The notes under the pieces were generated by a model. That model made no database searches. It was not told where the DNA came from and was given only the letters and a program-made list of their open reading frames with translations. A stretch of 64,000 nucleotides of DNA from Anaerolineales bacterium (lineage in GTDB: Bacteria; Chloroflexota; Anaerolineae; Anaerolineales; Villigracilaceae): assembly GCA_025056175.1 (NCBI GenBank), contig JANWWK010000043.1, positions 1 to 64,000 of the forward strand, given 5' to 3'. Each line of letters opens with the position of its first letter. The first letter of the stretch is position 1. Made by a program: the position numbers and the translations under genes. Positions 10,912 through 39,372 of this stretch are shown here, piece after piece.

Positions 10912-10940
10912 ATTCTACCATTGGCCTGTGAATTTGTTGA
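10912..10940 (-). promoter_or_regulatory. Putative promoter of the sugar transferase gene
   Basis: TAGAAT at 10917-10912 is preceded at 17 bp by TCAACA (10940-10935), which matches TTGACA at 4 of 6 positions. The -10 box ends 7 bp before the ATG at 10904. A single CTGTGA (plus strand 10926-10931) lies in the spacer and resembles the boxes found near 23385 and 37031, but at 8 rather than 10 bp from the -10. Confidence 0.5.
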
Positions 10941-10978
10941 GAAACGTGTAATTTTATAAAAGTCATATACAGGTTGGG

Positions 10979-10984: not shown

Positions 10985-11007
10985 CTTTTATGAAAGGGTC
11001 ATTGATT

Positions 11008-11688
11008 ATGAACGAGCGAATTCTCATCATTGAAGATGACCAGGCCATTCTGAAACTGTTGCAGCGAGGCCTGGCCTATGAGGGCTATGCGGTGGATGTG
11101 GCGACCGATGGCCGCACTGGCTTGAACCTGGCGCGTGACCGTAACCCCGACCTGGTGGTGCTGGATTGGATGCTGCCCGGCATGGACGGGCTGGAAGTCT
11201 GTCATCGCCTGCGGCTGGCCGGTGGAATGCCAATTTTGATGCTCACTGCCAAAGATTCGATCCAGGACCGGGTGCAAGGGTTGGACGCCGGCGCCGATGA
11301 TTACATGGTCAAGCCTTTCAACCTGGATGAATTGCTGGCGCGTATCCGTGCCTTGCTGCGGCGTACCCAGCCCGAACGCAACCAAGTGTTAAAATTTGCC
11401 GACCTGACGCTGGATACCGGTTCACGCGAGGCCACGCGCGGTGGCAAACTGATTCAATTGACCGCCAAAGAATATGAACTGCTGGAACTCTTCATGCGGC
11501 ACCCCAAACAGGTGTTGACCCGCGAGGTGATCTTCGACCGCGTGTGGGGGTACGATTTCGGCGGTGAGAGCAACGTGCTGGAAGTGTACATCCGCTATCT
11601 GCGCCAGAAGCTGGAAGACAACGATACCCTGCCGCGTCTGATTCATACCGTGCGGGGGGTAGGGTATGTCTTGCGGGAAACACCGTAA
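11008..11688 (+). CDS. OmpR/PhoB-family response regulator (system 1)
   Basis: About 226 aa. The receiver domain (1-118) has the acidic pair EDD near 9, the phospho-acceptor Asp in [12 protein letters not shown] (about 52), the conserved Thr in LMLTAKD and the Lys in YMVKPF. The winged-helix output domain (about 130-224) shows [23 protein letters not shown] and [12 protein letters not shown]. It should bind DNA when phosphorylated by the histidine kinase encoded 123 bp downstream. Two starts are possible: ATG 10990 (leaderless, 5 bp after TATAAT) or ATG 11008, which is preceded by AAAGGG and starts the family's usual [10 protein letters not shown]. Its genes of action are unknown. Confidence 0.93.
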
Positions 11689-11714
11689 CCGACAACCGCC
11701 AAACCCAGGCAAAC

Positions 11715-11752
11715 GATAAAAACGCCAGGCAAACGCCAGTGGCGTTTTTATC
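11715..11752. terminator. Hairpin between response regulator and kinase genes
   Basis: A 13-bp perfect inverted repeat, GATAAAAACGCCA (11715-11727) and TGGCGTTTTTATC (11740-11752), lies 26 bp after the response-regulator stop. The T-run in the right arm makes it a plausible terminator or attenuator that would lower kinase expression relative to the regulator. TACAAT at 11772-11777 could restart transcription for the kinase. Confidence 0.65.
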
Positions 11753-11811
11753 TTAAATTCATGTGCTGAGAGTACAATCGTGATTAAAGCACTGGCTCAA
11801 TTGTTTGTTTC

Positions 11812-13179
11812 ATGTCTCTGCGTCTGCGTCTGACCCTCCTGTACACTTCGATGCTGGGCGGTATCCTGTTGGTGTTTGGAACGCTCATCTACTTTCTGGT
11901 TGGTGACTTCCTGGTCAACCAGATAGACCGCACGCTGGCAAATACCGTCAAAAACATTCTTGCGAATGCGCGGGTGACCACCACGGGCGATTTGAACATG
12001 CTCAACCTCGCCGCGCTCGAAATGTCCACCAGTGTTCATGTGCAGTATTGGGATTGGCGAGGCAATTTGAAAATGGTTTCTCCAGGCATAAGCGAGTTTG
12101 AGCAACCCCTCGACGAACAAAGCCTGCTTTCGCCGCGCCCGGTTTATCGTCATGTCTATTCTCGACAGGTTCATTGGCGCGTTTTGACTGCACCACTGGT
12201 GGCCGACAACCGTCCAGCGGGCGTCGTGCAAGTGGCAACCAATCTGAACATCCTGGATTCAATTCAGCGCACTTTGCTGGTGCTGTTGATTTTCCTGACG
12301 GTGTTCTCGATGGTGGTGGCCGCGGTGGCCTCCTGGCTTTCGATTGGTCAAGCGCTGGCCCCACTCCAAACCGTTACCCGCACGGCGGAACAAATCACCC
12401 GCGCCGACGACCTTTCACGCCGCATTCCCTACAGCGGGCCCGAACACGATGAAATTGGCACGCTTATCCGCGCCTTTAACCGCACATTTGAGCGACTCGA
12501 AACCCTGTTCACTGCCCAACAGCGCTTTCTGGCTGATGTCTCGCATGAACTGCGCACGCCGCTGACGGTCATCAAGGGCAATGCTGACCTGATTCGAAAA
12601 ATTGGGCCGGATGAAGAATCGCTCAACTCGATTAAAGACGAAGCGGACCGGCTGACCCGCATGGTTGAAGATTTGTTGCTACTGGCGCAGGCCGAATCGG
12701 GGAAATTGCCGCTTAACTTGCGTACCGTGATGCTGGATGAACTCTTAACCGACGTCTTTCAGGAGATGCGCGTGCTGGCCGGCGATAAAGTTCACCTGAA
12801 ATTGACCGAAATTGACCAGGTGACGCTGAGCGGTGACCGTGACCGGCTAAAACAAGTATTCATCAACCTGATAGCCAATGCCATTCATTACAGCCCGATT
12901 GGCGGTGATGTGTACATCGGCCTCTCTCGTTCGCAGGAGATGGCGCGCGTCATCATTCGAGATATGGGGCCGGGCATTCCGGCCAAAGACCTGCCGCATA
13001 TTTTTGACCGCTTCTATCGGGGAGAAAAATCGCGCACGCGTTCCAAAACGAGCGGTTTTGGGTTAGGGCTTTCGATTGCCTATTTTCTGGTGGATGCCCA
13101 TGGCGGGCGCATTGAAGTCAACTCACAGGAAGGGCGGGGAACAACCTTTGCCGTGTACCTGCCGCTCAGCGCAGAATGA
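11812..13179 (+). CDS. Sensor histidine kinase (system 1)
   Basis: 455 aa. Order: first membrane helix (about 8-33), extracytoplasmic sensor region (about 34-155), second helix (LLVLLIFLTVFSMVVAAVASWL, about 158-180), HAMP domain (about 180-235), HisKA with the phospho-accepting His in DVSHELRTPLTVIKGN (about 243) and an HATPase domain with N (INLIANAIHYS), G1 (IIRDMGPGIP), F and G2 (SGFGLGLSI) boxes. It should phosphorylate the regulator encoded upstream. No clear ribosome-binding site precedes the ATG. The signal sensed cannot be told from the sequence. Confidence 0.93.
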   Translation: MSLRLRLTLLYTSMLGGILLVFGTLIYFLVGDFLVNQIDRTLANTVKNILANARVTTTGDLNMLNLAALEMSTSVHVQYWDWRGNLKMVSPGISEFEQPLDEQSLLSPRPVYRHVYSRQVHWRVLTAPLVADNRPAGVVQVATNLNILDSIQRTLLVLLIFLTVFSMVVAAVASWLSIGQALAPLQTVTRTAEQITRADDLSRRIPYSGPEHDEIGTLIRAFNRTFERLETLFTAQQRFLADVSHELRTPLTVIKGNADLIRKIGPDEESLNSIKDEADRLTRMVEDLLLLAQAESGKLPLNLRTVMLDELLTDVFQEMRVLAGDKVHLKLTEIDQVTLSGDRDRLKQVFINLIANAIHYSPIGGDVYIGLSRSQEMARVIIRDMGPGIPAKDLPHIFDRFYRGEKSRTRSKTSGFGLGLSIAYFLVDAHGGRIEVNSQEGRGTTFAVYLPLSAE

Positions 13180-20823: not shown

Positions 20824-22239
20824 TCAGCCTCCGAAGGGGCCAAACCCGCCTGGAGCACGCGGCTGGTCTTGTTGCTGCTGAGTGTCCGAAGAGCCGCCAA
20901 CCTGCACCAGGTCGCCTTCTTTCAGTCCACCGGTCTTGACGAGCGTCACCAACCCGCCCGAAAGGTCGCCGGTTTGCACGTCCACGCGCTCGGTGACGCC
21001 ATCCGCGCTCACGCGCAACACGTATTCGCCCTGGCTATCGGTCAGCACGGCGCCAATCGGAACGGCCAGCAGGGTGGTCGGCTCACCGGTGGTGATGACG
21101 ACGTTGGCCGTCGCGCCGAACAGGATGGCGCTTTCTGGACGTTCGACCGAGACGATGACAGTGTATTTGACCAGGCCGCTGATGGTCTGTCCGATGGGGT
21201 CAATCAGGCTCACCTGGCCTTTGAGCGTCAGACCGGGCAGCGAATCGAGGCTGATTTCTGCCGGGTCGCCGACTTTGACCTGCGTGATTTCGGATTCATC
21301 AATGGCGAGTTCCACTTTGAGCGTGCTGTAATCCACCAGGCCGAGCGCCACGGCGCCTTTTTCGACCGCCTGACCGGGCTGGGCGTAGAGGACAATCACC
21401 TCGCCATCGAACGGCGCGAGGATGTACATCGTTTCTGCCTGTTCCCGGGCAGCGGCGAGGTTGGCTTCGGCTTGCGCCAGCTCGGCGGAGGGTTGCCCGC
21501 TTTTCAGGCGCTCCAGGGTGCGTTTGGCGTTTTCCAGCTCAATTCTGGCTTTTTCCACGTTCAGGCGGGCTTCTTCGTACTCTTTGGGGTCGGGTTTTCC
21601 GGTGTACCAGTTGAGTTTGGCCTTGAGCGAGTTCAGATTCAATTGAGCGTTGGTCAGGGCCAGCGCGGCTTCGGTCTTGCGCGAATCACCATCAGGAAGG
21701 CTTTGTACGGCGCGGTAACGCTCGGCGGCGCGCGCAACGGCCTGTTCGGCCTGACGGATTTGGGCCTCTGTGTTCTGAATGAGCGCATCGGAGGCGCGGG
21801 GATAATCGAGCGAGGCGTAGGTTTTTTCGGCTTCGGACAGGGCCTGTTCGGCAGTAACCACGTCCAACTCGGCCTGAGTCAATGTCAGGGTGTTGTCTTT
21901 CAGGTTGGCGAGGGTTTCCTCGGCGGAGGCGAGGTTGGCGCGCGCCTGCAAAATGCTGGCGGGAACCGAATCCAGCCGGAGCGAGGCGAGCAGGTCACCT
22001 TTTTTGACCTGGCTGCCCGCCTGGACGTTGACCGATTCGATGACGCCGCTGGTTCCCCACGCGAGCGTGGTCAATTGCCCGGCGCTGAGCGTACCGCTGG
22101 CTTCGATGGTGCTGCCGAGCGTGACGGTGGCAACCGGCTGGGTGGTGACGCTGGCCTGCGCGCTGGCCTGTCCGGCGCAGGCGGTGAGCAACAGGCTGAA
22201 GGCAAGCAGAGAGACGATGAGTTTGGGTTGGAGACGCAT
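20824..22239 (-). CDS. HlyD/MacA-type membrane fusion (adaptor) lipoprotein
   Basis: 471 aa. A lipoprotein signal ends LLLTAC (Cys about 20). A biotinyl-lipoyl half (IEASGTLSAGQL, SVNVQAGSQVKKGDLLASL, about 35-75) is followed by a long coiled-coil hairpin rich in Ala, Glu and Leu (about 80-270), the second lipoyl half (APFDGEVIVLYAQPGQAVEKG) and a beta-barrel domain (about 300-430). The tail is Gly/Pro/Phe-rich (GGFGPFGG). In Gram-negative bacteria this protein bridges to TolC; in a bacterium of this kind it probably works with the permease alone. The ATG at 22239 starts the signal peptide; the frame upstream has no similarity. It is the third gene of the efflux operon. Confidence 0.92.
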   Translation of the reverse strand: MRLQPKLIVSLLAFSLLLTACAGQASAQASVTTQPVATVTLGSTIEASGTLSAGQLTTLAWGTSGVIESVNVQAGSQVKKGDLLASLRLDSVPASILQARANLASAEETLANLKDNTLTLTQAELDVVTAEQALSEAEKTYASLDYPRASDALIQNTEAQIRQAEQAVARAAERYRAVQSLPDGDSRKTEAALALTNAQLNLNSLKAKLNWYTGKPDPKEYEEARLNVEKARIELENAKRTLERLKSGQPSAELAQAEANLAAAREQAETMYILAPFDGEVIVLYAQPGQAVEKGAVALGLVDYSTLKVELAIDESEITQVKVGDPAEISLDSLPGLTLKGQVSLIDPIGQTISGLVKYTVIVSVERPESAILFGATANVVITTGEPTTLLAVPIGAVLTDSQGEYVLRVSADGVTERVDVQTGDLSGGLVTLVKTGGLKEGDLVQVGGSSDTQQQQDQPRAPGGFGPFGG

Positions 22240-22295
22240 ACAGGTATCCTTATTTTTCTTTTCGAGGGGAGAAGGGGCTGATGGGAATGTGTGAG

Positions 22296-22312
22296 GCAAA
22301 TCAGAGATTTGC
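22296..22312. repeat. Interspersed palindrome GCAAATC-AGA-GATTTGC
   Basis: A perfect 7-bp stem with AGA loop overlaps the stop of the next gene (minus strand). The same 17 bases occur at 56848-56864. Confidence 0.6.
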
Positions 22313-22690
22313 ACTACGTTCTTCCGGCGGGGCTGATGCAGGCGTCTTGCGGCTGGCGCGCCAGGCATCGAACCAGACCAGTCCGCGCTGAACGAGCAGG
22401 ACGAGGACGACAATCACCGCCAGTTTGAGCAGCGAGCCAGCGATGCCGCCCAAACCGCGCAACAGCGAAGGACCGCGTTCGCGTCCGCCGAAGGGACGGC
22501 CCTCCAACCCTTGCGGTGGCAGGCGGTTGCCGTCGAAATCGGGGCGGCGGAACGATTCTGCCTCGCGGCGGGAGAGACCGGAGAGCGCTTGCGTATGCGT
22601 TGCGCCCCACCACCACCCCGCGCCGAACAAAGCCACCACTGCGCTCAACACGAGCAGAGGGAGAAGGATAAATTGAACGAACTTTTTCAT
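22301..22690 (-). CDS. Hypothetical small membrane protein in the efflux operon
   Basis: 129 aa, not recognised. There is an N-terminal helix (FVQFILLPLLVLSAVVALFGAGWWWG, about 4-29), an Arg/Glu/Gly-rich middle (about 40-80), a second helix (LLKLAVIVVLVLLVQRGLVWF, about 83-104) and a charged end. AAAGG precedes the ATG at 22690; the frame is open upstream through a repeat tract and this part is not counted. It sits between the DUF4405-like gene and the adaptor gene and is probably translated from the same transcript. Its stop codon lies in an interspersed palindrome. Confidence 0.7.
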   Translation of the reverse strand: MKKFVQFILLPLLVLSAVVALFGAGWWWGATHTQALSGLSRREAESFRRPDFDGNRLPPQGLEGRPFGGRERGPSLLRGLGGIAGSLLKLAVIVVLVLLVQRGLVWFDAWRASRKTPASAPPEERSANL

Positions 22691-22715
22691 AGCATGACCT
22701 TTCCTTTTTGGGTAA

Positions 22716-22816
22716 TTGGTGATTGGTGATTGAAGATTGGTGATTCGTCGCGGTGCTCCAAAACTGTTCACTGATTACTGATTATTGATGACTGATGACT
22801 GATGACTGATTACTTT
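22716..22816. repeat. Short tandem heptamer tracts
   Basis: Two tracts with 7-bp period: GATTGGT/GATTGAA units at about 22722-22745 and TGATGAC/TGATTAC units at about 22770-22815. The second encodes the last residues (SNQSSVISHQ) of the DUF4405-like protein. Similar tracts occur at 37127-37220 and 45052-45072. Confidence 0.6.
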
Positions 22817-23300
22817 TCATCGGATACGTTTCGCGCCGAAACAACCTGGACACCGGCTGAACCACATAACGGTTGAGATTGTTCACAATCCATTTCCAAT
22901 GCAGGGCCAGGTGCAAACCCAAGACCAGCACAGAGGCGTCCGAAAGCGTATGATGCAGCCCCTCCCACACCGGATTGCGCTCGATGCTGATGCCCAAAAA
23001 GGCCAGCACACTCTCAGAAATCATCAGGCCGCTGAACAAAGCCCCGGTCATCAAAACCAGGAACAAGAGATTGACCACATAGTTCAGACGCGAGGTGTGC
23101 CAGAGTTTCTTGAAAAACGAGGCAGTTACGCTCACAATCCACTCCCAGTGCAGGACGAGATGCGTGAGCAGAGCCGCCAGAAACGCCACCCCCAGCCATT
23201 CATGAATGCTCATGCCGGTCATATCGGGGTTGGCAAGCACCAGAAAGGCCAGGAAAACGATGCTATCGAAGATGAGATTGGTTCTGCTGGAAACAGACAT
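22782..23300 (-). CDS. DUF4405-like membrane protein (putative heme-binding four-helix protein)
   Basis: 172 aa. Four hydrophobic helices are visible. Helices 2 and 4 carry paired histidines in near-repeated strings, THLVLHWEWIVS (about 65) and LHLALHWKWIVN (about 135), the pattern of DUF4405/cytochrome-b-like proteins in which His pairs can hold heme. Middle helices are LNYVVNLLFLVLMTGALFSGLM and the following segment with GLHHTLSD. AAAGGAG precedes the ATG at 23300. It is the first gene of the efflux operon and lies directly behind the CTGTGA-box promoter at 23369-23428. The last ten residues come from a heptamer repeat. Heme binding is inferred only from the His pattern. Confidence 0.75.
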   Translation of the reverse strand: MSVSSRTNLIFDSIVFLAFLVLANPDMTGMSIHEWLGVAFLAALLTHLVLHWEWIVSVTASFFKKLWHTSRLNYVVNLLFLVLMTGALFSGLMISESVLAFLGISIERNPVWEGLHHTLSDASVLVLGLHLALHWKWIVNNLNRYVVQPVSRLFRRETYPMKSNQSSVISHQ

Positions 23301-23368
23301 AGGAAAACTCCTTTTGCTTGATGGTATAGAAAATAACGACGTCTTGCTCACTGTTCACTGATACCTGC

Positions 23369-23428
23369 ATTCTAAAATCCGCGCCTGTGAAGCCCCCAAG
23401 AAGAGCCTGTGAAAACGCTGTGAAAGAC
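23369..23428 (-). promoter_or_regulatory. Response-regulator-type promoter of the efflux operon
   Basis: On the plus strand CTGTGA boxes start at 23385, 23407 and 23418, a spacing of 22 and 11 bp, with a degenerate box (CCAAGAA) at 23396 filling the gap, so four 11-bp units lie in tandem. Exactly 10 bp separate the last box from TAGAAT (23374-23369, minus strand), and no -35 hexamer is present. This is the arrangement of PhoB/OmpR-activated promoters. The same layout occurs at 37015-37074. Confidence 0.75.
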
Positions 23429-23457: not shown

Positions 23458-23463
23458 TAGAAT
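23458..23463 (+). promoter_or_regulatory. -10 box directly before the hybrid kinase start
   Basis: TAGAAT ends 6 bp before the ATG at 23470. No ribosome-binding site is present, so the mRNA is predicted to be leaderless. Confidence 0.5.
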
Positions 23464-23469
23464 TTGGGC

Positions 23470-26400
23470 ATGCGTTCTCCCTTAACCATCGGCTTTATCT
23501 CAGCCTGGCCGATTTATCAGGGAACCACCATTGACCGGTATGCCCATTCGCTCATTCAGGGCATCAGCGCGGCGGCGCGTGATGCCGGTTGCCGGCTTTT
23601 GTTGGGATGCGGCTTTAGCGTGACGGGCAACAACGCCCAACGGCGCAGCTTTTGGCCGGTTCCCGGCCCGGAGGTAGATTTCGTACCAGTTGGCCCATGG
23701 AATACCGATGGGTTGATTATCGTCCCCGATGAATTGACCGAAACGCAATTGGAATATGTCCGCGATTTGCAACGCGGCGGCTTTCCAGTGATTTTCACCA
23801 CGCCAGAGGGCCCGGGTCCGCTCGTGAAAGTAGATAATACGCTGGGGATTTGGCAGGCATTTGCCCATCTCATGGAGCATGGGCATCGTCAGATAGCCTT
23901 TATTGCAGGCAACCCGAACGGACGCGGCGACAGCCGCGAACGTCTGGCAGCGTATCGAGAAGCCCTGGCCGATGCCGGCTTGCCTTTGGACGAACGTTTG
24001 ATTGCCTTTGGGGAACACCGGCGCGAAGGCGGAGCGGCGGCCATGCGTCAGATTCTTTCGACCGGCGCGCCCTTCAGCGCGGTGATTGCCAGCAACGACC
24101 TTTCTTGTTTGGGGGCCATTGAAACCTTGCTGGCCGCAGGCCGACGCATTCCCGACGATGTGGCGGTGATTGGCTTCGATGACATTCTGGATGCGCGCGC
24201 GCTCGCGCCTTCTCTCACCACCATTCGGCATCCAACGTTTACGCTCGGACGTCAGGCCGTGCTGACCCTGCTGGAATATATTCGGGGCGAACGAAAAGAG
24301 ACAACCCCGGTGGTCGTGCCGCCTCGCTTGATTATCCGTCAATCCTGTGGTTGCAGTCCGGCCCAGCACGAAGCGCTCTTCACAGAAGAATTCTCGCTCG
24401 ATGAACTGGCGCAAGAAATGGCCGAAGCCGCGCTCATCGAAGCGCGCAACAGCCTTCCTGAAGAACTGCAAACCCAAACGGCCTCGTTTCTGAACGCGTT
24501 TACGCACAGCCTGTCTCGCCAAGAGACCGCTCCTTTTCTGAGTGAATTGAACCGCGCCCTGACCTGGACCGAAGAACGAGGCGAGGATGCCCATCTATGG
24601 CAGGCGGCTGTTGGTGTTTTGCTTCAAAAATTGAATACGCTGCCGAACGCCTCGGGCTCCGAATTCGCCATTCGCCTGCTCGACCGCGCCCGGCTGGAAA
24701 TCAGTGACCGGATTCAACGCCAGACCACCCGCGCTATGCTTGGACATCTGGATATGACCGCCCAACTTGGTCAACTGACCGCCGAACTGCTCTCGGCGAT
24801 GAATATCCAAGAAAGCGCGGAAATCCTGGCGCGCCATTTGCCCCGCATCGGCATCAAAAACGCGCTGGTGGCGTTGTATGAACCGGACGAGGAAGAGCGC
24901 GCCGACCATGCCGTCGTCTTGTTTACTGCCGGGATGTCGGCGGCGCATATCGGCCTGCGCTTTGAGACGCGCAGTTTTCCTCCCCGCGAAATTTACCCCC
25001 TTCAGGGAGCGATTCAACTTACCCTTTTGCCTTTGCACGTGGACGAACGCACAACCGGCGTGGTTGCCTTCGAGGCCCCCAACCCGGAACTTTGCGCGGC
25101 CATTGTTCACAACCTTTCTGCTGCCTTACGCACCAGCCGCCTGTACCAGGAGGCGCTGGAAGGCCGCCGCCTGGCCGAAGAAGCGAATCGCCTCAAGAGC
25201 CGCTTCCTTTCAATGGTCAGCCACGAACTCCGCACGCCGTTGAGCCTGATTGTTGGCTTGAGCGAGATGGCCTTGCGGTCGAAGGAAGTCGAAAAGCGCG
25301 ACCTGGAGCAAATCAACACCAGCGCGCAGCATCTGGCGCGTCTCATTGGCGATGTGCTAGACCTGGCCTCCAGCGAAGCAGGGCAATTGCGGATTTTGCG
25401 CGAACCGCTGGACCTGTCAGAAGTCTTGCGCGTGACCGCTGAAATCGGCGCGCAACTGGCTGCCGAAAAAGGCCTGGACTGGCAGGCCGACCTGCCCACG
25501 CAAGGCCCCTGGGTCATGGGCGACCGCACCCGCCTGCGTCAGGTAACGCTCAATCTCATCAGCAATGCGGTCAAGTTCACGCCCACGGGTCGTATACGAC
25601 TCTCGCTTCAGACCGGGCAGGGGCAGGCCCTCATCTCGGTCAGCGATACCGGCATAGGCATCCCCGCCGCCGAGCAGGAGAGCATTTTCCATGAGTTCTA
25701 TCGCGCCGAACGGTCTGTCGAAACAGCCGGCGGCATGGGGTTAGGGCTGGCAATCACCAAAGAGTTGATAGAACAGCACAACGGCAAAATCTGGGTTCGT
25801 TCCCCTGGCGAGTTCGGCTGCGGTTCAACCTTTACCTTTGCTTTGCCTGTGCTTTCTGCTGCCGCCGAGCGTCTTTCTGTTTCCGAATGGCCTGCAAGCG
25901 GTTCCCGAGTCCTGGTGCTGACCGAAAACAGCGCAGCCACTGAACGTTTGTCGTCTGCGCTGCAACAGCAGGGCTTCGAGGTCGAAATCTGGCGCGTAGA
26001 TGAACATCCCGACTGGCTGGCGCAGGTGCCTGCGTTTTCTCCGCTTGCGCTGATTTTGGACGAATCCCTGGCGGCGCGCGAGGGTTGGGTTATTGCCGGC
26101 ATTCTGAAACGCCAGCCTGCTACGGAACACATTCCGGTTCTGGCATATTCTCTCGATACCGAACAGAACCTGGGCGGTTTGCTGGAACTGAACTACCTTC
26201 ATAAACCCTTGCAAGCCGCGCAACTGGCAAAAGAACTCTCGCAGTTGCTCCAACCTTCCTCTGGATTGCAAACCGTCCTCATCGTAGATGACGACCCCGG
26301 CGTTCTTGAATTGCATACCCGCCTGGTAGAACAACTGGGCCGAAAAACGCTCACCGCCCGGCATGGCGGCGAAGCCTTGAAGATTCTGGAACAAACCCAT

Positions 26401-26976
26401 CCCGATTTGATTTTGCTGGATTTGAACATGCCGGAAATGGATGGCTTTGCCCTGCTGGAAATTCTCCGCAGCCGCGAAAGCACCCGCGACATTCCGGTCG
26501 TCATTCTCACCGGACGCCTGCTTTCGGAAACCGACCTGGAACGCTGTCATCGCGGCGTGGCTGCCATTTTAGGCAAAGGGTTGTTCACCGCAGAAGAGAC
26601 TCTGGCGCGGCTTCAAGCCATTCTGGAGCGGCGCGGCGCTTTGAGCGCCACCACCCGTCCACTGGTGCGCCGGGCGATGGCGTTCATTCACGCCCATTTT
26701 GCGGAACCCATCACCCGTGAAGAGATTGCCGCGCATATCGGCATTAACGCCGATTATCTGACGGATTGTTTTCGTCAGGAACTGGGCATTACCCCCATCA
26801 CCTACCTTCGCCGCTATCGCGTTCGCCAGGCCTGTGAGCTCTTGCGTTCGTCCAGCCAATCTATCACTCAGATAGCCATGCACGTCGGCTTTGCCGATAC
26901 CGCCCACTTTACGCGCACCTTTTTGCGCGAGATGGGCATGACGCCCAAAGCCTATCGCCGAAGCATCTCACGCTGA
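23470..26976 (+). CDS. Hybrid histidine kinase: LacI-type sensor, GAF-like region, HisKA-HATPase, two receivers, AraC output
   Basis: About 1168 aa, no signal peptide or membrane helix, so likely cytoplasmic. Residues 1-295 form a LacI/GalR ligand-binding domain without its DNA-binding head (TIGFISAWPIYQ, MEHGHRQIAFIAG, SAVIASNDLSCLGAI, DDVAVIGFDDI, then RQSCGC). A GAF-like region lies at about 440-560. HisKA has the phospho-His in MVSHELRTPLSLI (about 583) and HATPase ends GMGLGLAI (about 760). A first receiver-like domain (about 815-930) lacks a clear acceptor Asp; the second (about 935-1050) has LIVDDDPG and LLDLNMPEMDG. The AraC helix-turn-helix pair ends it (FADTAHFTRTFLREMGMTPKAYRR). 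It sits before the galactan operon and probably senses an imported sugar and activates that operon. A TTG at 23464 is an alternative start. Confidence 0.9.
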   Translation: MRSPLTIGFISAWPIYQGTTIDRYAHSLIQGISAAARDAGCRLLLGCGFSVTGNNAQRRSFWPVPGPEVDFVPVGPWNTDGLIIVPDELTETQLEYVRDLQRGGFPVIFTTPEGPGPLVKVDNTLGIWQAFAHLMEHGHRQIAFIAGNPNGRGDSRERLAAYREALADAGLPLDERLIAFGEHRREGGAAAMRQILSTGAPFSAVIASNDLSCLGAIETLLAAGRRIPDDVAVIGFDDILDARALAPSLTTIRHPTFTLGRQAVLTLLEYIRGERKETTPVVVPPRLIIRQSCGCSPAQHEALFTEEFSLDELAQEMAEAALIEARNSLPEELQTQTASFLNAFTHSLSRQETAPFLSELNRALTWTEERGEDAHLWQAAVGVLLQKLNTLPNASGSEFAIRLLDRARLEISDRIQRQTTRAMLGHLDMTAQLGQLTAELLSAMNIQESAEILARHLPRIGIKNALVALYEPDEEERADHAVVLFTAGMSAAHIGLRFETRSFPPREIYPLQGAIQLTLLPLHVDERTTGVVAFEAPNPELCAAIVHNLSAALRTSRLYQEALEGRRLAEEANRLKSRFLSMVSHELRTPLSLIVGLSEMALRSKEVEKRDLEQINTSAQHLARLIGDVLDLASSEAGQLRILREPLDLSEVLRVTAEIGAQLAAEKGLDWQADLPTQGPWVMGDRTRLRQVTLNLISNAVKFTPTGRIRLSLQTGQGQALISVSDTGIGIPAAEQESIFHEFYRAERSVETAGGMGLGLAITKELIEQHNGKIWVRSPGEFGCGSTFTFALPVLSAAAERLSVSEWPASGSRVLVLTENSAATERLSSALQQQGFEVEIWRVDEHPDWLAQVPAFSPLALILDESLAAREGWVIAGILKRQPATEHIPVLAYSLDTEQNLGGLLELNYLHKPLQAAQLAKELSQLLQPSSGLQTVLIVDDDPGVLELHTRLVEQLGRKTLTARHGGEALKILEQTHPDLILLDLNMPEMDGFALLEILRSRESTRDIPVVILTGRLLSETDLERCHRGVAAILGKGLFTAEETLARLQAILERRGALSATTRPLVRRAMAFIHAHFAEPITREEIAAHIGINADYLTDCFRQELGITPITYLRRYRVRQACELLRSSSQSITQIAMHVGFADTAHFTRTFLREMGMTPKAYRRSISR

Positions 26977-36372: not shown

Positions 36373-36981
36373 TTATGTTGCCCATGCCGGTTTCCACCCA
36401 TATTCCATCCACAACCCCAGGCGATAACTTCCCCAGCCGAGCGCCAGCCCGCCAATGGGGTCTAGCAGGTGATGCTGACCGGTGAACAGGGTGGACGCAA
36501 TGACCAGCGCCACGCTGCCATGCAGCCACAGGCTCCAGCGCGGCTTCCAGAGCGACCCAAACAGCGCAATCAACGTGGTATAAAGCACATGCCCGCTGGG
36601 AAAGGCATTGAACACCTCATCATGGCTGTATAACGTTTGCAAGAAGCGCGCAGCCCAATCCGTCGCTTCGATGAGCGGACGCTCGGTATAGGTAGGAAAA
36701 ACGAAATAAATGAGCGTGGCGATGGATGTCGCAAAAATCGAGGCCGTCATCAAGGCGCGAAAGAGCGTTTCTTCCATCTTCATGGCTGCCCATAGAAACG
36801 CGCCTGCCCAAAAGGGCAGAAAAAGCAGATACGGGATAACAAATTCGGGGATAATTGGGATGTAGGCATCCAGCGCAGTTTTCAGGTTGTACCCGTCCGT
36901 CAAAAGACGGTTGAGCGGAAAATAAAGCACGGAAACAGCCGCCAGCGCGGTCAGCCAGAGAAAACGTTGGGTTCGGGTCAT
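36373..36981 (-). CDS. PAP2-like lipid phosphatase, membrane protein
   Basis: 202 aa with five to six helices. The phosphatase motifs are FNAFPSGHVLYTT (about 125, the PSGH core) and STLFTGQHHLLDPIGG (about 163-178, second His plus Asp); the first motif (KxxxxxxRP) is not obvious, as in the PAP2_3 / inositol-phosphotransferase-like branch. Such enzymes remove phosphate from prenyl or diacylglycerol phosphates at the membrane. AAGGAG precedes the ATG at 36981. It is divergent from system 2 and has a promoter of the same design as that of the MacAB-like efflux operon, which suggests a role in envelope stress. Confidence 0.83.
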   Translation of the reverse strand: MTRTQRFLWLTALAAVSVLYFPLNRLLTDGYNLKTALDAYIPIIPEFVIPYLLFLPFWAGAFLWAAMKMEETLFRALMTASIFATSIATLIYFVFPTYTERPLIEATDWAARFLQTLYSHDEVFNAFPSGHVLYTTLIALFGSLWKPRWSLWLHGSVALVIASTLFTGQHHLLDPIGGLALGWGSYRLGLWMEYGWKPAWAT

Positions 36982-37014: not shown

Positions 37015-37074
37015 ATTCTAGAACGCCCGCCTGTGACCCACCCAAGAACCCTCTGTGAAATTCCTGTGAAACAC
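37015..37074 (-). promoter_or_regulatory. Response-regulator-type promoter of the PAP2 gene
   Basis: CTGTGA boxes on the plus strand start at 37031, 37053 and 37064 (22 and 11 bp apart), with CCAAGAA at 37042 filling the gap. The last box is exactly 10 bp from TAGAAT (37020-37015, minus strand). There is no -35 hexamer. Layout and much of the sequence match 23369-23428. Confidence 0.78.
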
Positions 37075-37082
37075 ACCCCGAT

Positions 37083-37115
37083 TAACAGTTTTTTCACAGC
37101 AAAAAAGAGTATGAT
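37083..37115 (+). promoter_or_regulatory. Putative autoregulated promoter of two-component system 2
   Basis: Facing the response regulator gene, TAACAG (37083-37088) and TCACAG (37094-37099) are 11 bp apart, then exactly 10 bp, then TATGAT (37110-37115). This is the same design as the PAP2 promoter but in the opposite direction. The leader to the ATG at 37226 would be about 100 nt. Confidence 0.65.
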
Positions 37116-37126
37116 GGGGAAGGATG

Positions 37127-37220
37127 AAGGATGAATGGTGAATGATGAATGATGAATGATGAATCAATCTCCAATCCTGAATCCTCAATCATCAATCCTC
37201 AATTCTCAGTCTTCAATCTC
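37127..37220. repeat. Heptamer repeat tract in the leader of system 2
   Basis: GATGAAT-type units with 7-bp period run from about 37127 to 37165, followed by AATCCTC/AATCATC-type units to about 37215. They fill the predicted 5' leader of the response-regulator mRNA. Confidence 0.65.
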
Positions 37221-37225
37221 TTCCC

Positions 37226-37903
37226 ATGCCCACCATTCTGATTGTTGACGACGACCCCAAACTGCTCAAAATGCTCCAGCGCACGCTAACCTACGAAGGA
37301 CTCAACGTGCTGACGGCCTCCAATGGTCTGGAAGCCCTGGAACAGGTGGACGCGCGCGCCCCCGACCTGCTCATCCTGGACTGGATGATGCCCAAAATGG
37401 ACGGAATGAGCCTGCTGCAACAATTGCGCGCCGAAAAGAACCGCGTACCGGTGCTGATGCTCACGGCCCGCGATGCCATCGAAAACCGCGTGGAAGGGCT
37501 GGAAAGCGGCGCCGATGATTACCTGATAAAACCCTTTGCCCCTGCCGAACTGGTCGCGCGCGTCCACGCCCTGTTGCGGCGCGCTCAGCCTGAATCATCC
37601 GAACAGCCGCTCGCTTATGCCGACCTGCGGCTCGACCCGCGCGCGCGCGAAGCCTGGCGCGGCCAAACCCGCCTGCAACTGACCGTCACCGAATTCAACC
37701 TGTTGCATCTCTTTCTGCGCCATCCCCGTCAGGTATTGGAGCGCAGCCGCATTCTCAACGAAGTGTGGGGCTACGACTTTGGCGGCGATGATAATGTGCT
37801 GGAAATTTACGTCGGCTATCTGCGTAAGAAACTCGAAGCCGGTGGGCTGCCCCGCCTCATCCAGACCGTGCGCGGGGTGGGATATGTGCTGAGAGAAGAG
37901 TAA
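37226..37903 (+). CDS. OmpR/PhoB-family response regulator (system 2)
   Basis: 225 aa. The receiver has VDDD near 7, the phospho-Asp in LILDWMMPKMDG (about 52), Thr in LMLTARDA and Lys in YLIKPFAPAEL; the winged-helix domain (about 128-225) has LTVTEFNLLHLFLRHPRQVLERS and [13 protein letters not shown]. It is a paralogue of the regulator at 11008. It is the obvious candidate to bind the 11-bp-spaced CTGTGA boxes around 37031-37099 and 23385-23428, since OmpR/PhoB proteins bind tandem 11-bp repeats. No ribosome-binding site is visible at the ATG, which follows a heptamer tract. The kinase gene follows 38 bp later. Confidence 0.93.
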   Translation: MPTILIVDDDPKLLKMLQRTLTYEGLNVLTASNGLEALEQVDARAPDLLILDWMMPKMDGMSLLQQLRAEKNRVPVLMLTARDAIENRVEGLESGADDYLIKPFAPAELVARVHALLRRAQPESSEQPLAYADLRLDPRAREAWRGQTRLQLTVTEFNLLHLFLRHPRQVLERSRILNEVWGYDFGGDDNVLEIYVGYLRKKLEAGGLPRLIQTVRGVGYVLREE

Positions 37904-37941: not shown

Positions 37942-39372
37942 ATGTCCATCCGTCTCCGCTTTGCCCTGTTATACAGCGCCATCCTGGCTGTCATCCTGGC
38001 TTTCATCGGCCTGGCAATTTACGGCATTCTCTCGCGCGTCACCTATGCGGCCTTGCAGGATGACCTGCGCCGCGCCAGTTTTGGGCTGGGCGAGGCCATT
38101 TTGAGCGCCAACAGTCTCGACGTCCAGATTCCCCCCGTCACAGGCCGCCCGCCGCGCGCCTTTAGCGAATTTCCCGAAGACCGCCCCTTCCGCGATTTGC
38201 GCGAACGTGAAATTGTCCGCATTCTCGACCCGCTTGGCAGCCTGCTTGCCAGCCCGATGGGACGCCTGGAAGATGCCCTGCCGCTGGAAGAACGCGGCCT
38301 GACCGAACTGCAAGCCGGGCGCGATTGGTGGCAAATCGCAACGGTCAACGGTCAGACAATGCTCATTTACAACCGCCCGCTGGCGCAAAACGGGCAGGTT
38401 CTCTACATTTTGCAAGTGGCGCGTTCATTGGAAGAGCGCAACCGCTCTTTGGGATTCTTTGGGCTATCGTTTGGCGGGTTGAGCCTGTTCATCATCGTCA
38501 CCGCGCTGGGGGTGGGGTGGCTGTTTTCGGGCGCGCTCTTGCGCCCGATTGTGCAAATCACCCAAACCGCGCAGACCATCGGCCAGGAACGCGATTTCAG
38601 TCATCGCGTGCAATATCGCGGCCCGCAAGATGAAGTCGGCAAATTAGCAGCCACGTTCAACAATATGCTGGCGCAACTTCAGGAAGCCTACGATAAGGTG
38701 GCGCATTCGCTCCAGATGCAGCGCGATTTTGTGGCCGATGTCTCGCACGAACTTCGCACCCCGCTCACCACCCTGCGCGGCAACCTGGGTCTGCTTCAGC
38801 GCCAGCCGCCGCTTCCGGCGCAGGAGCAGGCCGAGATTTTGAGCGATATGGCCGAAGAATCGGACCGTCTGATCCGCCTGGTGAACGACCTGCTGACCCT
38901 GGCGCGGGCCGATGCCGGGCGCAATCTGGCCCGCGAAGCGCTCGAACTCGCCCCCATTCTGGAAGAAACCTGCCGACAGGCGCGCGCCCTCGACCCGGCG
39001 CGGGAAATCTCCCTCGAAACCGCGCCGCTCACCATTCTGGGTGACCGCGATGCGCTCAAACAGGTTCTGCTCATCGGGCTGGATAACGCCCTCAAGCATT
39101 CCACCGGTCGGGTGTGGGTCACTGCCCATCGAAACGGCAGCCAGGCCGAAATCCAGATTCGAGACGAAGGCCCGGGCATCCCCCCGGAGACGCTTCCCCA
39201 CATCTTCGACCGTTTCTATCGCGGCGAAGAGAGTCTCACGGTGCCGGGCTTTGGGCTGGGGCTGCCGATTGCCAAAGCCCTGACCGAGAACATGGGCGGG
39301 ACGATTGCGATGGAAAGCGAAGTGGGACGCGGAAGCACGCTGAAGATGTTGTTTCCTCTTTCTCCTGGTTGA
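37942..39372 (+). CDS. Sensor histidine kinase (system 2)
   Basis: 476 aa. The first membrane helix (LLYSAILAVILAFIGLAIYGIL, about 8-30) is followed by an extracytoplasmic region (about 31-168), the second helix (GLSLFIIVTALGVGWLFSGAL), HAMP (about 195-245), HisKA with DVSHELRTPLTTLRGN (about 262) and HATPase with N box IGLDNALKHS, G1 IRDEGPGIPP and G2 GFGLGLPIAK. Kinase and regulator form a matched pair. The HAMP/HisKA layout is like that of the kinase at 11812, so the two systems are probably duplicates with different sensor regions. Confidence 0.93.
   Translation: MSIRLRFALLYSAILAVILAFIGLAIYGILSRVTYAALQDDLRRASFGLGEAILSANSLDVQIPPVTGRPPRAFSEFPEDRPFRDLREREIVRILDPLGSLLASPMGRLEDALPLEERGLTELQAGRDWWQIATVNGQTMLIYNRPLAQNGQVLYILQVARSLEERNRSLGFFGLSFGGLSLFIIVTALGVGWLFSGALLRPIVQITQTAQTIGQERDFSHRVQYRGPQDEVGKLAATFNNMLAQLQEAYDKVAHSLQMQRDFVADVSHELRTPLTTLRGNLGLLQRQPPLPAQEQAEILSDMAEESDRLIRLVNDLLTLARADAGRNLAREALELAPILEETCRQARALDPAREISLETAPLTILGDRDALKQVLLIGLDNALKHSTGRVWVTAHRNGSQAEIQIRDEGPGIPPETLPHIFDRFYRGEESLTVPGFGLGLPIAKALTENMGGTIAMESEVGRGSTLKMLFPLSPG

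What the first reader, a model, noticed from the sequence alone, without database searches (positions are those of the whole stretch)
23369..23428. Matching 11-bp-phased CTGTGA promoters predict an envelope-stress regulon (efflux operon copy)
CTGTGA at 23385, 23407 and 23418 lie 22 and 11 bp apart, with a degenerate unit between. The array ends exactly 10 bp from TAGAAT on the minus strand, and no -35 hexamer is present. The same spacing and much of the same sequence recur at 37015-37074 before PAP2. OmpR/PhoB regulators are known to bind tandem 11-bp repeats that replace the -35. The downstream operon encodes a DUF4405-like protein, a MacAB-like efflux pump and two extra membrane proteins, so an envelope or antimicrobial-stress response is inferred.
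Basis: partly seen in the sequence, partly recalled or inferred. Interest (0 to 1): 0.72.

Follow-up and report, generated by a model that had tools for sequence, protein, structure and literature searches.

The report
Self-regulating envelope-gene switch in Anaerolineales
Three promoters in this stretch carry the same evenly spaced repeat, very probably the landing sites of one two-component regulator that switches on a small set of cell-envelope genes and its own gene; the design recurs in dozens of related bacteria, but its triggering signal is unknown.

Summary
Read on the minus strand, 23369-23424 is TTCACAG-N4-TTCACAG-N4-TTCTTGG-N4-TTCACAG-N10-TAGAAT before the DUF4405/MacAB operon; 37015-37070 is nearly the same before PAP2. 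These are the only pair matches with 0-1 mismatch in the 3.57-Mb genome. Of 46 regulator orthologs, 40 carry the two-unit promoter and 39 a divergent four-unit promoter, against 0 of 368 shuffles and 0 of 18 paralog upstreams. The four-unit motif tracks the regulator across 400 genomes (36 of 44 versus 6 of 356). The box equals the published M. tuberculosis PhoP box (PMC4832192, passages). So: an OmpR/PhoB-type regulon of envelope genes, conserved in one Chloroflexota order. 'Stress' is plausible, not shown; binding and activation are inferred, not measured. The supposed degenerate third unit is itself conserved as TTCTTGG, the most novel point.

The parts
23369..23374 (-). -10 element TAGAAT of the DUF4405/MacAB operon promoter
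   Evidence: TANNNT at spacer 10 in 38 of 39 four-unit operators of relatives chosen without scoring the -10
23385..23391 (-). operator unit 4 (TTCACAG), nearest the -10
23407..23413 (-). operator unit 2 (TTCACAG)
23418..23424 (-). operator unit 1 (TTCACAG)
22782..23300 (-). first gene of the operon: DUF4405 protein (PF14358); start taken at the ATG at 23300 by eye. One DUF4405 protein from another bacterium was purified and bound heme b (PMC11334425, passages)
   Evidence: (E 8.7e-13, run on 22782-23306)
22301..22696 (-). small membrane protein (by eye), no Pfam or NCBIfam match
20824..22242 (-). MacA/HlyD-type membrane-fusion protein
   Evidence: PF16576, PF13437
20093..20821 (-). ABC-transporter ATPase
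   Evidence: PF00005
18855..20090 (-). MacB-type permease
   Evidence: PF12704, PF02687
18295..18846 (-). last gene of the run, membrane protein (by eye) with no family match
37015..37020 (-). -10 element TAGAAT of the PAP2 promoter
37031..37070 (-). four-unit operator of PAP2: TTCACAG-N4-TTCACAG-N4-TTCTTGG-N4-GTCACAG
36373..36981 (-). PAP2-superfamily membrane phosphatase gene
   Evidence: PF14378, PF01569
37082..37099 (+). two-unit operator TTAACAG-N4-TTCACAG of the regulator gene (autoregulatory copy, not in the finding)
37110..37115 (+). -10 element TATGAT of the regulator promoter, 10 bp after the operator
37226..37903 (+). OmpR/PhoB-type response regulator (receiver + Trans_reg_C), the proposed binder
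   Evidence: orthologs
37942..39372 (+). membrane histidine kinase (HAMP, HisKA, HATPase), the proposed cognate sensor

Best explanation
The array is the operator and -10 of a class-II promoter activated by the OmpR/PhoB-type response regulator encoded at 37226, paired with the histidine kinase at 37942. When an envelope signal makes the kinase phosphorylate the regulator, regulator protomers bind head to tail to the 7-bp boxes, one every 11 bp on one face of the DNA, over the place where a -35 would be, and bring RNA polymerase to the weak TANAAT -10 exactly 10 bp further. Target operons have four units (three TTCACAG-like plus TTCTTGG in place three); the regulator gene has two units and a better -10 (TATNNT), giving basal expression and positive feedback. 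In this genome the clear regulon is three promoters: the DUF4405/MacAB operon, PAP2 and the regulator-kinase pair; weaker sites are not excluded. Shown here by sequence: architecture, conservation, co-occurrence with the regulator, gene content. Inferred: binding, activation, phosphorylation, the signal.
For: Only two exact and one single-mismatch TTCACAGN4TTCACAG in 3.57 Mb, all three here, one before the regulator gene. 46 distinct orthologs fetched by protein similarity, not by the motif: two-unit promoter (score at least 15 of 17) in 40 of 46, divergent four-unit promoter (at least 21 of 24) in 39 of 46; best of 368 shuffles 14 and 17; best of 18 paralogous-regulator upstreams (54-61% identity) 13 and 17. 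Unit pairs at N4 in 41 of 46 regions, at any other spacing from N0 to N12 in at most 4; TANNNT at spacer 10 in 37 of 37 and 38 of 39 operators selected without the -10. Across 400 genomes of the order the four-unit motif occurs in 36 of 44 genomes with an ortholog and 6 of 356 without, reversed-pattern control 0 of 400; one of the six, G265, has two partial ortholog matches on two contigs. Nearest solved relatives are M. tuberculosis PrrA and PhoP; PhoP binds TCACAGC-N4-TCACAGC as a tandem dimer, more tightly with 3 and 4 units (PMC4832192, passages). Five of its six base-contacting helix residues (N212, V213, E215, Y217, Y220; S216 differs) are present in 46 of 46 orthologs.
Against: No binding, transcription-start or expression data. 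Eight of 44 genomes with the regulator lack the four-unit motif at 2 mismatches or fewer (G041, G062, G065, G127, G157, G185, G287, G320); five of these have a weaker version beside the regulator (score 21-22), three do not (G041, G065, G320). Five genomes have the motif without a detected ortholog (G022, G136, G179, G398, G400). Six of 46 orthologs lack the two-unit promoter at threshold (G057, G044, G117, G125, G041, G253) and seven the divergent four-unit one. The two-unit pair alone is a poor marker: at up to 1 mismatch it hits 30 of 61 genomes, 11 of 12 with and 19 of 49 without the ortholog, and the reversed control hits 12 of 61. The other OmpR-type regulator in the window (10990-11688) has the same five helix residues, so the helix alone does not name the binder. 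Orthologs are related, so counts are not independent events.
Confidence: 0.9

Rival explanations
1. The operator belongs to another OmpR-type regulator, in particular the one at 10990-11688 in the same window.
For: Its recognition helix [13 protein letters not shown] carries the same five contact residues, and a weaker pair TTCTCAACAAATTCACAG lies just upstream at 10926-10943 on the minus strand.
Against: A regulator matching the query at 49-61% identity, the range in which this one (58%) lies, is found in 57 of 61 genomes, but the four-unit motif is in 12 of 61. None of the 18 such upstream regions scanned (54-61% identity, one of them only 149 bases long) reached either threshold. TAGAAT near the 10926 site is 8 bp away, not 10.
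Confidence: 0.05
2. CTGTGA/TCACAG are half-sites of a CRP/FNR-type regulator (consensus recalled as TGTGA-N6-TCACA).
For: The half-site letters agree (recalled consensus).
Against: The units are direct, not inverted, repeats; the only TGTGA-N6-TCACA match at up to 1 mismatch in the window is at 22290, outside both intergenic regions, and 1.4 were expected by chance. Direct N4 spacing is found in 41 of 46 regions.
Confidence: 0.01
3. The arrays are mainly repressor sites: the regulator blocks promoters at TAGAAT and TATGAT.
For: OmpR-family proteins can repress (recalled); sequence alone does not show the sign of regulation.
Against: The boxes end at a fixed 10 bp upstream of the -10 and no -35 is recognisable, the arrangement that in E. 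coli pho promoters usually substitutes for the -35 (PMC4971064, passage). Target -10s are weak (third base T in 5 of 39 against 34 of 40 for the regulator promoter; counted, test), which suits activator dependence.
Confidence: 0.04

Closest known systems
Mycobacterium tuberculosis PhoP operator (TCACAGC-N4-TCACAGC)
   Same: Same 7-mer, same 4-bp spacing, tandem reading; arrays of three and four units also bound (PMC4832192, passages). Regulator similar over its full length (E about 5e-60), five of six base contacts identical.
   Different: Different phylum and gene set; here a fixed N10-TANAAT, a conserved non-cognate third unit and a two-unit autoregulatory copy. Not shown to be an ortholog.
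E. coli PhoB pho box / class-II promoter
   Same: Two 7-bp repeats separated by 4 bp, usually placed near the -10 in place of the -35 (PMC4415409, PMC4971064, passages).
   Different: Box letters differ (CTGTCAT in E. coli, PMC4415409); the regulator fails the NCBIfam PhoB cut-off (232.4 versus 296.2 bits). Whether phosphate genes lie behind the motif was not tested: the 17-protein reference set held none.
DUF4405 cytochromes of flavinylation systems
   Same: The operon's first protein matches PF14358; two relatives have ApbE behind the same kind of promoter.
   Different: No ApbE among the six genes of the window operon; here DUF4405 is combined with MacAB. By PMC11334425 (passages) only a minority of DUF4405 proteins sit beside apbE.

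Membership tests
OmpR/PhoB-family response regulator | Receiver domain followed by winged-helix Trans_reg_C domain | tested here: met
   PF00072 E 6.1e-35 and PF00486 E 3.1e-27
OmpR/PhoB-type tandem operator | 7-bp direct repeats separated by 4 bp | tested here: met
   N4 in 41 of 46 regions, at most 4 for any other spacing N0-N12
Class-II activated promoter | Operator at a fixed short distance from the -10, no usual -35 | tested here: met
   Spacer 10 in 37 of 37 and 38 of 39 operators; no sigma70-type pair found by the scan
Class-II activated promoter | Regulator binds and activates transcription | not testable with these tools
   needs footprinting and reporter assays
PhoB equivalog | NCBIfam TIGR02154 score above the curated cut-off | tested here: not met
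   232.4 bits against 296.2
MtrA equivalog | NCBIfam NF040689 score above the curated cut-off | tested here: not met
   213.1 bits against 300
M. tuberculosis PhoP-type DNA recognition | Helix residues N212, V213, E215, S216, Y217, Y220 | tested here: inconclusive
   five of six identical in 46 of 46 orthologs, S216 replaced by I or V; a paralog shares the five too
CRP/FNR binding site | Palindrome TGTGA-N6-TCACA (recalled consensus) | tested here: not met
   no match at up to 1 mismatch in either intergenic region
DUF4405 family | PF14358 above gathering score | tested here: met
   49.0 bits against 26.7

The most novel reading that the evidence does not exclude
The conserved third unit TTCTTGG is not a decayed box but a separate functional element built into the regulator's array. 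It holds TTG near -37, so it may be read by sigma region 4 (a displaced -35) or by a regulator protomer in another state, making a four-box operator with one deliberately non-cognate box. Together with weak TANAAT -10s on targets and TATNNT plus two cognate boxes on the regulator gene, this would be a two-tier promoter code that sets strict activator dependence for targets and feedback for the regulator.
Probability: 0.35. Interest if true: 0.6.

Novelty: new member of a known kind. Interest (0 to 1): 0.5.

Why it matters
It turns a pattern seen by eye into a defined regulon, with operator, -10, regulator and targets, in a bacterial order whose six named relatives found here are all metagenome-assembled genomes. 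It puts poorly understood genes (DUF4405 proteins, VTC/DUF4956/CotH and Cthe_2159 clusters, MacAB, PAP2) under one proposed envelope signal, so any one can report on the others. It also offers a testable promoter design in which one of four boxes is conserved as a different sequence.

Tried and rejected
A CRP-type site was tested and rejected. CTGTGA counts alone are not significant, so no argument rests on them; nor on the two-unit pair alone, which also occurs in 19 of 49 genomes without the ortholog. Control by the second OmpR-type regulator in the window was weighed and judged unlikely. Of the 12 pair hits with 2 mismatches in the genome I looked only at 10926-10943, which I read as incidental. 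A regular expression for the covalent-flavin motif (recalled) found nothing in four proteins of the window operon or in the ORFs of at least 70 aa listed for L108, L119, L261 and L254; L253 gave no such ORF. Paper searches for DUF4405, for VTC/CotH/DUF4956, for Anaerolineae regulons and for polyphosphate/CotH regulators gave no report of this regulon (listings; only the best 12 of 317 and of 1,025 papers were listed); this covers only the held open-access library. PMC2879425 (passages) shows VTC and CotH genes side by side in Clostridium perfringens and no link to a two-component system in those passages. The PhoB-sigma70 structure paper PMC3173795 is not held. The phylum-wide scan used a stricter 1-mismatch pattern and only genomes at least 90% complete, so its 4 of 300 is not directly comparable.

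Bias to note: the patterns contain TTCTTGG, so loci they brought in cannot test unit 3. The test set is the 39 sites beside orthologs fetched by protein search, where unit 3 was not scored. The 74- and 77-site sets are mixed. In one search, sites needed 18 of 21 in units 1, 2 and 4 plus TANNNT at N10; downstream ORFs within at most 2000 bases (fewer where the locus ends) were compared with 17 reference proteins of my choosing at E 1e-4; 20 of 77 matched none. Some genes are counted twice because two sites lie 230-290 bp apart before the same gene (L241, L257, L262). Of the 46 orthologs none was dropped. Five named loci (L126-L130) were left out of the 46 as apparent duplicates of genomes already counted, judged by equal contig lengths. 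One search does not list all its 400 genomes, so that saw the same 400 is taken from the identical request and matching handles.

Full report
What is there. Read on the minus strand, 23424 to 23369 is TTCACAG-cgtt-TTCACAG-gctc-TTCTTGG-gggc-TTCACAG-N10-TAGAAT, and 37070 to 37015 is TTCACAG-gaat-TTCACAG-aggg-TTCTTGG-gtgg-GTCACAG-N10-TAGAAT. The first precedes a DUF4405 gene (ATG at 23300) followed by a small membrane protein, MacA-, ABC- and MacB-type genes and a last membrane protein; the second precedes a PAP2 gene. On the plus strand, after an 11-bp gap from the second array, lies TTAACAG-N4-TTCACAG-N10-TATGAT (37082-37115), before the response-regulator gene at 37226. CTGTGA itself is no commoner than chance in the window, but the 18-bp pair has just two exact and one single-mismatch matches in the 3.57-Mb genome, exactly these three, and 12 more with two mismatches.

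Is it conserved? I fetched regulator orthologs by protein similarity, without using the motif: 44 of 400 genomes of the same order (E at most 1e-95, 65-100% identity), plus G010 and L131, 46 in all. Of their upstream regions, 40 of 46 have a two-unit promoter reading into the regulator (score at least 15 of 17) and 39 of 46 a divergent four-unit promoter (at least 21 of 24, unit 3 not scored). In 368 dinucleotide-preserving shuffles the best scores were 14 and 17; in 18 upstream regions of paralogous regulators (54-61% identity) they were 13 and 17. With the -10 left out of the selection, TANNNT stood at a spacer of exactly 10 in 37 of 37 two-unit and 38 of 39 four-unit operators. Unit pairs occurred at N4 in 41 of 46 regions, and at other spacings from N0 to N12 in at most 4. 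The misses: six orthologs lack the two-unit promoter (four of one genus, G057, G044, G117, G125, and G041, G253), seven the four-unit one.

Who binds it? Among 400 genomes of the order, the four-unit motif (at most 2 mismatches) was in 42, of which 36 have the ortholog: 36 of 44 with it against 6 of 356 without (Fisher p about 3e-37, ignoring relatedness). The reversed pattern gave 0 of 400. One of the six exceptions, G265, has two partial ortholog matches on two contigs, the first beside the motif; the other five have no match better than 56% identity. In a smaller set it was 11 of 12 against 1 of 49. The two-unit pair alone is far less telling: 11 of 12 against 19 of 49, with reversed-pattern hits in 12 of 61. 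In the phylum, with a stricter pattern, 4 of 300 genomes had the four-unit motif, all in the window's own family, and 0 of the 269 outside the order. The six named relatives of the regulator at 69-76% identity are Anaerolineales, Anaerolineae or Chloroflexi MAGs, so I take the window to be from Anaerolineales (Chloroflexota); its own name was not shown.

How it likely works. The regulator's nearest solved relatives are M. tuberculosis PrrA (1ys6) and PhoP (3r0j, 5ed4 and others). In PMC4832192 (passages read) PhoP binds direct repeats of TCACAGC with a strict 4-bp spacer as a tandem dimer, and three or four units bind more tightly than two. The boxes here are the same, including a following C in most first units (52 of 74 sites of the mixed set). 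The base-contacting residues given there, N212, V213, E215, S216, Y217 and Y220, correspond to N, V, E, I/V, Y, Y, so five of six agree in 46 of 46 orthologs. The paralogous regulator at 10990 shares these five, so the helix explains the box but does not by itself name the binder; co-occurrence and adjacency do. In E. coli, pho boxes usually lie near the -10 in place of the -35 (PMC4971064, passage), as here. I therefore infer phosphorylation-driven tandem binding and class-II activation. None of binding, activation or the signal has been measured.

A conserved odd unit and two kinds of -10. In the 39 unbiased four-unit sites, unit 3 has T at place 4 in 34, T at place 5 in 34, G at place 6 in 29 and G at place 7 in 37, where a cognate box would read A or T, C, A, G; it is exactly TTCTTGG in 14, a cognate TTCTCAG in 2, and other words in 23, most of them one or two letters from TTCTTGG. 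I read this as selection for a different word rather than drift, with the caution that the sites are related. A hexamer starting at its TTG would lie 19 bp from the -10 and could be touched by sigma region 4; that is a hypothesis. The -10 third base is T in 34 of 40 regulator promoters but in 5 of 39 target promoters (counted; Fisher p 5e-11), which would make targets activator-dependent and the regulator basally expressed.

What it controls. Around 77 four-unit sites from this order, the first recognised downstream gene was VTC in 24, DUF4405 in 12, Cthe_2159 in 5, one lipoprotein family in 4, MacA/HlyD in 3 (plus 1 of another HlyD type), a PMT-type glycosyltransferase in 3, PAP2 in 2, and CotH, MacB and DUF4956 in 1 each; 20 were unclassified. 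Recognition was against 17 reference proteins, so other families could not be seen. Among the unclassified, two loci have ApbE further down (L108, L119) and one an HtrA-like trypsin-PDZ protease (L261). One DUF4405 protein was shown to bind heme b, and some sit beside apbE (PMC11334425, passages). The common theme is envelope: surface proteins and polymers, export, membrane redox and a PAP2 phosphatase.

Judgement. The finding is real, well placed and under-read: three promoters, not two, and a regulon conserved across one order. Mechanistically it belongs to a known kind. New here are the regulon and its gene set, of which I found no report in the searches, and the conserved third unit.

Noticed in passing
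37114-37218 and 22711-22814: 7-bp tandem repeats (GAATGAT, TCAATCC; ACTGATG, GGTGATT) lie in the regulator's leader and around the end of the DUF4405 gene and the gap after it.
   Followed up: no
23464-26976 (+): Divergent 1170-aa ORF that looks like a LacI-type sensor fused to kinase, receiver and AraC domains (by eye, no family search); the ATG at 23470 lies only 6 bp after a TAGAAT (23458-23463), so its mRNA may be leaderless.
   Followed up: no
10926-10943 (-) and 10990-13179 (+): Second two-component pair whose regulator has the same helix contacts; a weak box pair lies just upstream with TAGAAT at 8 bp instead of 10.
   Followed up: partly
L020, L027, L208, L209: In one genus (G057, G044, G117, G125) the regulator lacks its own two-unit promoter, although the divergent four-unit promoter before VTC is kept.
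   Followed up: no
L126, L129, L130, L023: A conserved leader element, roughly GGCTGTGATAAGATGAA, follows the -10 of the regulator promoter and holds one more CTGTGA (by eye).
   Followed up: no
L108, L119, L261: Four-unit promoters followed by ApbE (two loci) and by an HtrA-like protease (one locus), suggesting membrane redox and protein quality control in the same regulon.
   Followed up: partly
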